Assembly (NCBI RefSeq): GCF_003367375.1
Contig: NZ_CP031416.1
Location: 1,929,501-1,993,500 of the forward strand
Origin: Gallaecimonas mangrovi
GTDB lineage: Bacteria; Pseudomonadota; Gammaproteobacteria; Enterobacterales; Gallaecimonadaceae
DNA length: 64,000 nt
Reading direction: 5' to 3'
Below, piece by piece: positions 5,148 through 8,318 of the stretch; position 1 is the stretch's first letter, and every line of letters begins with the position of its first letter. The position numbers were made by a program, and so were the translations under genes. The notes beneath the pieces were generated by a model that saw only the letters and a list, made by a program, of their open reading frames with translations, did not search any database and was not told the origin of the DNA.

Positions 5148-5191
5148 GCCTTTTTTCCTTTTGTTTGGCTTAACTGTGTTAAGGAGCAAAC

Positions 5192-5219
5192 ATGATACCT
5201 GCACGGCCAGACAAGACAA
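5192..5219 (-). promoter_or_regulatory. Candidate sigma-70 promoter of asnS
   Basis: Read on the minus strand: TTGTCT (5219-5214), a 16-base spacer, and TATCAT (5197-5192), about 45 bases before the asnS start codon. This rests on visual consensus matching only. Confidence 0.4.
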
Positions 5220-5236
5220 GGATCTCGGTAAGGCAA

Positions 5237-5264
5237 TTTACATCGGCCGTGAAAGGAGTACATT
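5237..5264 (+). promoter_or_regulatory. Candidate sigma-70 promoter of the borosin-like operon
   Basis: TTTACA (5237-5242), a 16-base spacer and TACATT (5259-5264), 33 bases ahead of the precursor start codon. It is the best-matching pair in the 150-base divergent gap between asnS and the precursor gene. Confidence 0.4.
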
Positions 5265-5297
5265 AGTTCTGGGTTAACCAATGAAGGTGACAAACTT

Positions 5298-5513
5298 ATG
5301 GTCGAGTTATTGGATTTTCTTTACGAGCTAGGTCGTGATGCGAGCCTGGTTCGTCAGTTTAATGAAAACCCCCTTGCGTTAATGGCTGCCAAAGGCCTAA
5401 GTGAAGATTGCCAGCAAGCGCTGGTGAATACAGATCTGGCCAAGCTCGGCGTACTGGCGGCTGTTGCGCCAGTGAATTCTATTCAGTCTGTTATTACCAG
5501 TTTCGGAGACTAA
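5298..5513 (+). CDS. SonA-like split-borosin precursor peptide (putative RiPP precursor)
   Basis: This 71-residue protein has an N-terminal helical domain of about 55 residues followed by a short C-terminal tail. The helical pattern (LGRDASLVRQFNENP, MAAKGLSEDCQQALV) matches the LigA-like 'borosin binding domain' of split-borosin precursors such as SonA of Shewanella oneidensis, which as I recall is nearly the same length and also ends in a short beta-branched core and Gly-Asp. The candidate core is residues 61-71, containing I62, V65 and I66 and ending F-G-D. Start: AAGGTGA lies seven bases upstream of ATG 5298. A stop codon directly abuts the GTG of the next gene, and a borosin-type methyltransferase lies two genes on. 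Without that partner this would be an unremarkable hypothetical. The methylation sites and the mature product are inference. Confidence 0.78.
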   Translation: MVELLDFLYELGRDASLVRQFNENPLALMAAKGLSEDCQQALVNTDLAKLGVLAAVAPVNSIQSVITSFGD

Positions 5514-7262
5514 GTGTCGAAGCTGGTTACCCGCCTAGGGATAATAGTCTTACTGCTTGTTTCCTTAGGCGGGCTTGTTGAAGTCGCAAAGGCTGCTGAG
5601 AGTGGCAATGATATCGAGCAGCTATTGGCAAAGGCCGAAGCCAGCCGCGTTAAAGACCCAGCCAATACTCAAGCCTTACTCGAAAAACTCGCTAACGAAA
5701 TTTCCCACGGAACCGATGACGAGCTTATCCGCTACCAGCTGTTAACAGCGCACCAACTGTTATTGCGGGGCCAGTACACGGATGCCATCACCTCGTTAAA
5801 GCAGGTGCTCGCCAGCACCGACAATCCTAACCGTAAAATGCGTGCGCTTTATTTATTGGCGCAGGCTGAAGGCATTTTGAGCCACTTTGACGCTAGCTTT
5901 GAATACATCATGCAAGCCAGCGAACTGTATTCAAAACTCACCGAAAAACAGGCCAAGGTCGATTACTTTTTCATCATGACCTACATGTACAGCCGTGTTG
6001 ATGACTTTGATACGGCGCTCAGTAATGCCGAGCACTTGGTCAAGTTGGCGGCAGACGGTGACCCTTATCAAAAATGCATCGCTCAACAATCCTTAACCAC
6101 TGTCTATTCCATGGAACACAGCATGGCTAAAGGGCTAGATGCAGCCAAGAAACAAATTGCGCTTTGCCAAACCAGTGGTGGCGCGCTTTATGTTGCTGAC
6201 GCTAACCTTTTTATTGGCCGCTATTATTTTTCAAAAAATCAGCCTACCGAAGCGCTAACGTCATTTTTAAAAGCCAAAAATGGTTTTGATGATGTCGGTT
6301 ATAAAACCGGCCAAATAAGTACCAGCGTTGGTATTGCCAAAAGCTTTTTTGCGGTGGGTAACAAAGCGCTGGCCTATAGCTGGGCCAATAAAGCGCTGGA
6401 AATGATAGACAGCCAAAACCAGTGGAAGGAACAAGCTGAGCTCTACCAATTGCTGGCAAAGATCACCGCAGAAAAGAGTGACAATACCTTGGTGATGTAC
6501 ACCGAGAAATATGCTCATGCGGTGGAGGTGCTGGCCAATGAAAGCAAAAACACCCGGCTGTCCTACTTACAAGCCAAGCTGCGTTTTGACACCCAGCGCC
6601 AGCGTATCTCGTTGCTGGAGCAGCAGAACCTCTTATTAAAACTGCAAGATGCCAATGCCAAGCAACATATCTGGCTGATGGTACTGGGCCTGATTGCCAT
6701 TGCGGCAGTTTGTGCTTCCCTTGGGCTGCTGCTGATGCGTAATCACCGCCAGCAAAAACGTTTAAGAAACCTCACCGAGCATGACAGCCTTACCGAGCTA
6801 TTGAATCGGCAAACGCTTTTAAAAAGGGCGGAGTTACTGAGCAGTACAGGCAAGCCGGTAGCGGTGGTGGTGGCCAGTGTTGACGACTTTTCGCGTTTTA
6901 ACTTGCAGTACGGTATGCAAACGTCTGACCGGGTAGTGCGGCGGGTTGCAGAACGCTTTGAAAAGGCGTTTGGAAGCTTGGGCATTGTTGGGCGGCTGGG
7001 AGCGGCGGAATTAGCCGTGGTGGCGCTAGACGTTGAACCCGAACAGGTACATGACGCTGTGCGTCTTTGTCAGCGCCCCGGTATGAAAGGCGCCGATGCC
7101 AATTTGGATTTATTGTATTCCATCAGTTTTGGTTTGGCGCTGGGCCACGGGGATGAGAGTTTTGATTTTCTGCTGCAACAGGCCCAAAAAGCCTTAAAAG
7201 AAGCAAGGGAAAAGGGGCAAAGTTGTCTGGATATGACCAAGGAGAAGGAGACGCTGTCATGA
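5514..7262 (+). CDS. Membrane TPR protein with degenerate GGDEF domain, in the borosin-like operon
   Basis: This is a 582-residue protein. A signal sequence (about 5-27, ending VAKAAE) precedes about 350 residues of TPR-like helical repeats predicted to be periplasmic. A transmembrane helix follows (386-408, after a short coiled coil), then a cytoplasmic GGDEF-fold domain (about 421-575) that starts HDSLTELLNR. The domain looks catalytically dead: the signature GGDEF reads GAAEL (496-500), and the first metal-binding Asp of the usual DxD segment is replaced by S455. It therefore probably works as a sensor or scaffold rather than a diguanylate cyclase. It starts with GTG directly after the precursor stop (CGGAG five bases before) and its stop overlaps the methyltransferase start as ATGA, so all three genes should be co-translated. 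Confidence 0.85.
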   Translation: MSKLVTRLGIIVLLLVSLGGLVEVAKAAESGNDIEQLLAKAEASRVKDPANTQALLEKLANEISHGTDDELIRYQLLTAHQLLLRGQYTDAITSLKQVLASTDNPNRKMRALYLLAQAEGILSHFDASFEYIMQASELYSKLTEKQAKVDYFFIMTYMYSRVDDFDTALSNAEHLVKLAADGDPYQKCIAQQSLTTVYSMEHSMAKGLDAAKKQIALCQTSGGALYVADANLFIGRYYFSKNQPTEALTSFLKAKNGFDDVGYKTGQISTSVGIAKSFFAVGNKALAYSWANKALEMIDSQNQWKEQAELYQLLAKITAEKSDNTLVMYTEKYAHAVEVLANESKNTRLSYLQAKLRFDTQRQRISLLEQQNLLLKLQDANAKQHIWLMVLGLIAIAAVCASLGLLLMRNHRQQKRLRNLTEHDSLTELLNRQTLLKRAELLSSTGKPVAVVVASVDDFSRFNLQYGMQTSDRVVRRVAERFEKAFGSLGIVGRLGAAELAVVALDVEPEQVHDAVRLCQRPGMKGADANLDLLYSISFGLALGHGDESFDFLLQQAQKALKEAREKGQSCLDMTKEKETLS

Positions 7263-8023
7263 GTCTGGTCATTGTTGGTTTAGGCATTACCTTAGGCAAA
7301 CATTTAAGTGAACGTGCGCACAGCGAAATCGACAGTGCTGACACGGTATTTGCGCTAGTTGATGGTCTTGCCCTGGCCTGGCTGCAAAAACAGCGGCCAG
7401 ACATGATTTCCCTGCATCCTTTTTATCAGCAGGGTGAAACCCGGTTACAGAGTTACCAGTTAATGCGCGACCGCGTTATGGATGCTGTGAAGGAAGGTGG
7501 CCGTGTTTGCGCTGTCTTTTATGGGCATCCTGCGGTGTTTGCCGATGTACCACATATGCTGATGAAAGCCGCGGACGCTGCCAACATCAACGCCAGGCTC
7601 GACCCTGGTATCTCGGCTGATGCCTGTCTCTATGCTGACCTTGGCCTTGACCCTGGCCGGCGCGGTGTCACCGGTATGGAGGCCACCCAGTTTTTGATTT
7701 TTAAACGGCAAATTGATCCCGGCAGTTTACTGATCCTTTGGCAGGTTGGGGTGACGGGCGATTTGACCTTAAAGCGTTTTGATACCGAGCCTAACCGGTT
7801 GGCACTGCTGACCGAAAAACTCTGCCAATGGTATCCCAACGATCACGAAGTGATTTTGTACGAAGCCAATATTTACCCTATTGGCGAGTGCCGGGCTGAC
7901 TATATTCCGTTAAGCGAGCTAGCAAACCAACCTACCAGTCAAATAACCACCCTGGTGGTGCCGCCCTTAACCGAACCTTTAGCGGTCGATCATTTATGGC
8001 GACAGAGACTGGAGGCACTTTAG
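7259..8023 (+). CDS. Borosin-type peptide backbone alpha-N-methyltransferase (SonM/OphMA-like)
   Basis: This is a 254-residue enzyme of the tetrapyrrole (corrin/porphyrin) methylase fold, predicted to use SAM. It shows borosin-enzyme signatures rather than those of cobalamin enzymes: FYGHPAVF (87-94), PGISADACLYADLGLDP (116-132), EATQFL and ILWQVG. The catalytic residues established for the fungal OphMA (Y66, R72, Y76, Y98) align with Y56, R62, Y66 and Y88 here, each offset by exactly ten. No precursor is fused at its C terminus, so it would act in trans as in split borosins, on the SonA-like peptide encoded at 5298. The start is ATG 7259, with AAGGAGAAGGAG eight bases before it, overlapping the upstream stop. 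No corrin pathway gene is nearby. Confidence 0.88.
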   Translation: MSLVIVGLGITLGKHLSERAHSEIDSADTVFALVDGLALAWLQKQRPDMISLHPFYQQGETRLQSYQLMRDRVMDAVKEGGRVCAVFYGHPAVFADVPHMLMKAADAANINARLDPGISADACLYADLGLDPGRRGVTGMEATQFLIFKRQIDPGSLLILWQVGVTGDLTLKRFDTEPNRLALLTEKLCQWYPNDHEVILYEANIYPIGECRADYIPLSELANQPTSQITTLVVPPLTEPLAVDHLWRQRLEAL

Positions 8024-8066
8024 CTTGGTAGCGTAAGCTAAAGCCGATTGTGTTAGGAGAGTAAAG

Positions 8067-8318
8067 ATGAAGCCCTGGATCCTTCCCATTGTTGTTGCGG
8101 CATTATTAACAGGCTGCTCGAAGGTCACTGTGAAAAATTACAACGAGCTCAGTGTGGGTATGAACAGAGATAAAGTCGAAGATATCTTAGGCTCACCCAA
8201 TAACTGTGGCGATGCGGTATTAAAGGCGCAGTCCTGCCAATGGAAAGATGGCAAGAAAACGATAACGGTACAGTTTTTAGGCGATACCGTGGCAGTGTAT
8301 AGCCGCCAAGGATTTTAA
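8067..8318 (+). CDS. Small lipoprotein, DUF3862/SmpA-like fold
   Basis: This 83-residue protein has a short lipoprotein signal: basic start, hydrophobic core, and the lipobox LLTGC with Cys18. It is followed by a compact domain with the pattern YNELSVGMNRDKVEDILGSP, typical of the two-layer BLIP/SmpA-like (DUF3862) lipoproteins. Two more cysteines (about 47 and 57) could pair. It begins 43 bases after the methyltransferase stop with a clear TTAGGAGAG ribosome site and ends at a shared terminator, so it may be the last gene of the borosin-like operon or may have its own promoter. No role in peptide modification or export can be claimed from sequence. Related small lipoproteins occur widely in marine gammaproteobacteria. 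Confidence 0.75.
   Translation: MKPWILPIVVAALLTGCSKVTVKNYNELSVGMNRDKVEDILGSPNNCGDAVLKAQSCQWKDGKKTITVQFLGDTVAVYSRQGF

What the first reader, a model, noticed from the sequence alone, without database searches (positions are those of the whole stretch)
5298..5513. Candidate borosin precursor with core region SIQSVITSFGD
The first 55 residues are a compact helical module (LGRDASLVRQFNENP...GLSEDCQQALV) and the last 11 are unlike it: short, rich in Ile/Val/Ser/Thr, ending F-G-D. In SonA, methylation falls on beta-branched residues of the C-terminal core, so I62, V65 and I66 are the best guesses here. A strong ribosome site and first-gene position would give excess peptide relative to enzyme, which suits a substrate.
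Basis: partly seen in the sequence, partly recalled or inferred. Interest (0 to 1): 0.85.

Follow-up and report, generated by a model that had tools for sequence, protein, structure and literature searches.

The report
Split borosin precursor beside inactivated GGDEF protein
A 71-residue bacterial peptide gene looks like the substrate of a known kind of enzyme that adds methyl groups to peptide backbones, and it travels with a membrane sensor-like protein whose usual signalling active site has been lost in this genus.

Summary
The ORF 5298-5513 is real and, by every test I could run, a split (type IV-like) borosin precursor. Residues 1-54 match the SonA borosin-binding domain in sequence (E 2.9e-7) and predicted fold (0.7 A over 54 residues). 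The gene at 7259-8023 is a SonM-like methyltransferase (E 4e-62) with the four studied active-site residues. N-methylation itself was not shown; I66 and V65 are the best guesses for its sites. The finding does not mention the gene in between, 5514-7262: a TPR-membrane-GGDEF protein. It accompanies precursor and enzyme for 56 of 85 enzyme ORFs in the order sample and in 68 of 80 further loci, fused to the enzyme in 25. In this genus its cyclase motif is degenerate in 4 of 4 genomes that have it; 114 of 115 other rows keep it. A fifth congener lacks all three genes at the same site. The boldest reading left open is that the methylated tail is a ligand of the TPR domain; the evidence is mixed. 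A GGDEF domain in borosin architectures is already in print (legend only seen).

The parts
5298..5513 (+). split borosin precursor, 71 aa
   Evidence: SonA match E 2.9e-7; model and SonA fold matches
5298..5459 (+). borosin-binding domain, residues 1-54
   Evidence: 0.7 A over 54 residues to SonA chain 9ch7_H
5469..5510 (+). tail / putative core, residues 58-71; most likely methylation sites I66 and V65 (inferred)
   Evidence: alignments; SonA sites L63 and I65
5514..7262 (+). TPR - membrane helix - GGDEF protein, 582 aa, GTG start
   Evidence: Pfam and NCBIfam, model pLDDT 89, hydropathy
5658..6467 (+). TPR solenoid, residues 49-318, with C188 (6075-6077) and C218 (6165-6167), invariant in 119 of 119
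   Evidence: model, alignment
6999..7013 (+). degenerate GGDEF signature GAAEL, residues 496-500
7259..8023 (+). SonM-like alpha-N-methyltransferase, 254 aa
   Evidence: SonM match E 4e-62; Y56, R62, Y66, Y88 invariant in 13 of 13

Best explanation
5298-5513 encodes a split borosin precursor. Its N-terminal five-helix domain docks on the SonM-like enzyme encoded at 7259-8023, which adds alpha-N-methyl groups from SAM to one or more hydrophobic residues of the C-terminal tail (58-71, most likely I66 and/or V65), N to C. The tail is then presumably released by a host protease, as none is in the cassette. Shown here: homology, predicted fold, active-site conservation, gene order, joint absence in a congener. 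Inferred: docking, methylation, sites, direction, release. The TPR-GGDEF protein between them is a conserved partner of the pathway; in this genus it is probably no longer a diguanylate cyclase.
For: Precursor-SonA match, profile match (E 6.9e-30; the profile holds Shewanella-like precursors close to SonA), predicted fold. Enzyme-SonM match with Y56, R62, Y66, Y88 invariant, matching SonM residues whose mutants were assayed in PMC8429565 (section 9). Precursor, enzyme and TPR-GGDEF gene all present in 4 of 5 congeners and all absent in the fifth. Conserved three-gene association.
Against: No mass spectrometry. SonA sites map to Q63 and V65 in the ungapped register, so the sites are unsure. Leader and tail are equally variable within the genus. 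No protease gene in the cassette.
Confidence: 0.88

Rival explanations
1. Peptide signalling, built on the best explanation: the released, N-methylated tail is a ligand of the TPR domain, which controls the GGDEF domain (c-di-GMP output in most relatives; a protein-contact output or none in this genus).
For: Three-gene association and fusion of TPR-GGDEF to the enzyme. Precursor and TPR-GGDEF repeated as pairs beside one enzyme in 7 of 160 loci. Tail distance follows TPR distance after removing enzyme and GGDEF in the order sample (partial r 0.48, 0 of 300 permutations; 0.44 in the MAG order set). TPR fold near Rap and NprR pheromone receptors (Z 21-24). In RcbB a TPR domain represses a linked GGDEF cyclase (PMC12282931, abstract).
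Against: In the window's own clade the tail follows the enzyme (0.36) as much as the TPR domain (0.28), and in Xanthomonadales MAG loci the link is weak (0.14, 6 of 200). Permutations ignore shared ancestry. APPBP2 and APC subunits match the TPR fold better (Z 27-28). The cyclase motif is degenerate in this genus. Export of the peptide is unexplained.
Confidence: 0.22
2. Reverse control: the TPR-GGDEF protein senses another signal and controls or anchors the methyltransferase at the membrane; the peptide acts elsewhere, for example as an ordinary secondary metabolite.
For: Fusion of TPR-GGDEF to the enzyme in 25 of 80 loci. In the AGM and fused clade tail, leader, TPR and enzyme distances are all correlated.
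Against: Precursor and TPR-GGDEF are repeated as pairs without a further enzyme in 7 of 160 loci. In the MAG order set the tail follows TPR-GGDEF and not the enzyme.
Confidence: 0.35
3. The ORF is a LigA-like small protein with a structural C-terminal helix and no modified core.
For: LigAB and DesB match the model at Z 8.4-8.6 over 66-67 residues, tail included; the tail is modelled as a low-confidence helix 62-70. Weak Pfam LigA match, E 0.03, below cut-off.
Against: SonA matches are closer (0.7 A, 39% identity) and the neighbouring gene is a SonM-like enzyme, not a dioxygenase. An unmethylated SonA tail was itself helical in one structure (PMC8429565, passages).
Confidence: 0.05

Closest known systems
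SonA/SonM, type IV split borosin of Shewanella oneidensis MR-1 (PMC8429565: abstract, sections 6, 7, 9 and passages read)
   Same: Separate 71-aa precursor with five-helix binding domain and separate methyltransferase; same active-site residues.
   Different: Gene order precursor - TPR-GGDEF - enzyme rather than enzyme - precursor - TPR-GGDEF as in the Shewanella-like loci; different tail; a separate branch of the enzyme tree.
Borosin types drawn with a GGDEF domain in PMC11395268, Fig. 1 legend (part 1 of the text and passages read)
   Same: A GGDEF domain is named as part of borosin architectures.
   Different: Which type carries it could not be seen; the degenerate motif of this genus is not in the passages that I read.
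Fused TPR-GGDEF-methyltransferase loci of Luteimonas and relatives (this work, L149-L196)
   Same: Same three parts in the same order behind a precursor gene; sister group on the enzyme tree.
   Different: One polypeptide instead of two; intact GGDEF or GGEEF motif.
RcbB of Vibrio vulnificus (PMC12282931, abstract read)
   Same: N-terminal TPR and C-terminal GGDEF; its TPR domain regulates the cyclase.
   Different: Its partner is RcbA, not a RiPP precursor; sequence relation not tested here.

Membership tests
Type IV split borosin | Separately encoded methyltransferase and precursor (PMC8429565, section 6) | tested here: met
   Two genes, 5298-5513 and 7259-8023
Type IV split borosin | SonM-like methyltransferase with conserved active-site residues | tested here: met
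   E 4e-62 to SonM; Y56, R62, Y66, Y88 invariant
Type IV split borosin | Precursor with N-terminal five-helix borosin-binding domain | tested here: met
Type IV split borosin | Backbone alpha-N-methylation of the C-terminal core | not testable with these tools
   needs tandem mass spectrometry
Type IV split borosin | Dimeric enzyme bound to precursor | not testable with these tools
   no complex was modelled
Active diguanylate cyclase | Intact GG(D/E)EF signature | tested here: not met
   GAAEL in the window; degenerate in 4 of 4 congeners, kept in 114 of 115 other rows
RRNPP peptide receptors (Rap, NprR) | TPR fold of this kind | tested here: inconclusive
   Z 21-24, but unrelated TPR proteins reach 27-28
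RRNPP peptide receptors (Rap, NprR) | Receptor in the cytoplasm (recalled) | tested here: inconclusive
   The TPR part lies between two hydrophobic stretches and is predicted periplasmic by simple hydropathy only

The most novel reading that the evidence does not exclude
The cassette is a Gram-negative peptide-signalling unit: a ribosomal peptide made protease-resistant and membrane-permeant by backbone N-methylation is the cognate ligand of the periplasmic TPR domain of its own TPR-GGDEF receptor, and the window's genus carries a version whose receptor has lost cyclase activity while keeping the peptide, the enzyme and the TPR domain.
Probability: 0.22. Interest if true: 0.85.

Novelty: new variant of a known kind. 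Interest (0 to 1): 0.5.

Why it matters
The passages on bacterial split borosins that I could read give no biological function. A conserved sensor-like partner, fused to the enzyme in one clade and inactivated as a cyclase in another, makes the function testable: bind the methylated tail to the TPR domain, or delete the genes and measure c-di-GMP.

Tried and rejected
Rejected: that the BamE-like lipoprotein gene 8067-8318 belongs to the cassette; a homologue is kept at the same site in G002, which lacks the other three genes. Rejected: chance ORF. Rejected: viral relatives of the precursor fold; none convincing (best E 4.5). The promoter scan gave nothing above chance; a stem-loop with a T run after 8318 is seen by eye only and was not listed by that scan.

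Led nowhere: SonA/SonM locus tags beyond the original paper; borosin with c-di-GMP, 0 papers; borosin with GGDEF, 1 paper, in a figure legend. 32 held papers contain the word borosin, 30 were listed. I recall further borosin surveys (Imani 2022, Cho 2022, Lee 2024) that I could not read; one look-up by DOI was not held. They may already describe the TPR-GGDEF association, so I do not claim it as unpublished.

Limits of the counts. The 80 stretches surround mostly the higher-scoring matches, not all of them. One search kept the best 80 of at least 586 relatives, so it leans to window-like enzymes. Identical enzymes were counted once (56 to 55 sets). In one search I dropped five rows of the second set (L150 and L212, which I took for copies of L059 and L063 by coordinates and contig length; L146, L156 and L201 as badly delimited), leaving 119. 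Of the 46 rows of the window's clade, a filter on the letters PAE removed two, leaving 44; by comparing the printed rows these are L084 and L199, the latter unintended. The 125 motif rows hold the window twice and the L150 and L212 copies; one row (L156) was unresolved. The 12 of 17 and 2 of 42 table was counted by hand. One search translated the enzyme without its first codon; searches used 7259-8023.

Full report
Observation. The ORF at 5298-5513 exists as described: ATG start, 71 codons, tail SIQSVITSFGD. It is the first of three tightly packed genes. The second starts at 5514, the base after the precursor's stop; the third overlaps the second by ATGA at 7259-7262. Divergent asnS lies upstream, and a small BamE-like lipoprotein gene and bioA lie downstream (asnS and bioA named from their translations, recalled).

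Precursor. Against all PDB chain sequences the best matches are SonA chains (E 2.9e-7 for 7ltc_B), aligned without gaps over residues 3-61. The predicted model has helices 2-13, 15-23, 25-31, 36-43 and 47-53, then a low-confidence tail. The 18 best Foldseek matches are all SonA; VIA-align gives 0.7 A over 54 residues at 39% identity, Z 9.8. LigA-type dioxygenase domains follow at Z 8.4-8.6; PMC8429565 (section 7) also reports dioxygenase homologues of the SonA domain.

Enzyme. 7259-8023 matches SonM at E 4e-62 and fungal OphMA-type enzymes at about 2e-33. Y56, R62, Y66 and Y88 are invariant in 13 of 13 aligned relatives; by alignment these are SonM Y58, R67, Y71 and Y93, whose mutants were assayed in PMC8429565 (section 9).

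Distribution. In the genus, precursor, enzyme and TPR-GGDEF gene are present in G000, G001, G003 and G004 and not found in G002. In G002 asnS is followed directly by the lipoprotein gene and bioA. Of 59 genomes searched, 6 have a precursor match and 17 an enzyme match; the single-sequence precursor search misses distant precursors. Of 394 genomes of the order, 94 have the enzyme.

The middle gene. 5514-7262 encodes an N-terminal hydrophobic stretch, a TPR solenoid (49-318), a long helix with a membrane stretch (323-422) and a GGDEF fold, model pLDDT 89. Two cysteines, C188 and C218, are invariant in 119 of 119 relatives, which would suit a periplasmic disulfide (inference). A simple hydropathy test found both hydrophobic stretches in 85 of 119.

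Association. Of 85 enzyme ORFs in the 80 order loci, 56 have precursor and TPR-GGDEF on the same strand within 4.5 kb: 47 in the order enzyme-precursor-GGDEF (MAG) and 9 precursor-GGDEF-enzyme (AGM, the window's order). Of 80 further loci, 28 are MAG, 14 AGM, 1 in another order, and 25 have TPR-GGDEF fused to the enzyme; 12 lack a complete set, some at contig ends. Pfam confirms one fused protein (L151). On the enzyme tree (quick method), 19 of 21 AGM rows and all 25 fused rows lie on one side of a branch (86); without L076 the group is starred (98*). The fusions form one group (96*), and the four congeners group together (98*). Among 59 relatives, a match to the window's TPR domain occurs in 12 of 17 genomes with the enzyme and 2 of 42 without (Fisher p 4e-7). 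In 7 of 160 loci precursor and TPR-GGDEF are repeated as pairs beside a single enzyme.

Inactivation in this genus. The signature reads GAAEL, GAAEF, SGAEF and CGAEF in the four congeners; of 115 other rows, 114 keep both glycines, an acidic third residue and Glu, the exception being L101 with GGQQF. The window also lost K460 (115 of 115 elsewhere) and D464 (114 of 115). In 5 of 6 congener pairs GGDEF identity is lower than TPR identity; among 289 other pairs of similar TPR identity this holds for 1%. The gene stays open in all four. So the cyclase part is relaxed while the TPR part, enzyme and precursor are kept. That it is inactive as a cyclase is inferred from established GGDEF biochemistry.

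The tail. In 44 precursors of the window's clade mean entropy is 2.10 bits for 58-71 and 1.57 for 1-54 (p 0.017). Position 66 is I/V in 43 of 44, position 69 Y/F/H in 41 of 44. SonA sites L63 and I65 map to Q63 and V65 in ungapped register or to about S64 and I66 in the tail alignment. I rank I66 and V65 first.

Does the tail bind the TPR domain? In the first 55 sets, tail distance correlates with TPR distance after removing enzyme and GGDEF (partial r 0.48, 0 of 300), more than with GGDEF (0.25) or enzyme (0.13); leader-TPR is -0.02. On the larger set with ranks, in the order tail-TPR, tail-GGDEF, tail-enzyme: all 119 rows 0.25, 0.21, 0.16; MAG order set (46) 0.44, 0.35, -0.05; Xanthomonadales MAG (27) 0.14 (6 of 200), 0.21, -0.06; window's clade (46) 0.28, 0.06, 0.36, with leader-TPR 0.33; SonA-like tails (11) 0.40 (3 of 200), 0.23, -0.28. 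The result supports a tail-TPR link in one large set, weakly in another, and does not single it out in the window's own clade. The permutations do not account for shared ancestry, and a fast-evolving TPR domain could track a fast-evolving tail without contact. The TPR part resembles Rap and NprR pheromone receptors (Z 21-24), but APPBP2 and APC subunits score higher (Z 27-28). I give the receptor reading 0.22.

Known or new. Split borosins are known (PMC8429565: abstract, sections 6, 7 and 9 and passages read). A GGDEF domain is named in the Fig. 1 legend of PMC11395268 (part 1 of the text and passages read); which type carries it I could not see. A review (PMC11285071, passages) calls type IV clusters widespread in bacteria and cites types V-X. 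The held library has no paper with both borosin and c-di-GMP. Not found in the passages I read: the genus-wide loss of the cyclase signature, the absence of the whole cassette in a congener, the repeated precursor-GGDEF pairs and the divergence test.

Noticed in passing
L138 1-4407 (G002), compared with window 5158-8066: Natural empty site: a congener has asnS, lipoprotein gene and bioA in a row without the three-gene cassette.
   Followed up: yes
window 8067-8318: Small BamE-like lipoprotein gene next to the cassette, found in the 4 congeners with the cassette and, as a homologue, in G002 without it.
   Followed up: partly
L061-L130 and L174-L221: A second class of precursors has tails of the kind VCxxxPAEDDD followed by acidic stretches, also paired with TPR-GGDEF genes.
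   Followed up: partly
L134 600-2516 (G285): A 638-aa protein with an N-terminal region of unknown kind, a methyltransferase domain and, by eye, a C-terminal region like the binding domain: a fused borosin-like protein.
   Followed up: no
L195 and L204 (Rhodanobacter): Runs of several precursor genes: five in L195, four in L204, beside one methyltransferase.
   Followed up: no
L156 (Natronospiraceae MAG): GGDEF-like partners of more than 1000 aa on both sides of a single methyltransferase; the GGDEF signature of the one examined did not align.
   Followed up: no
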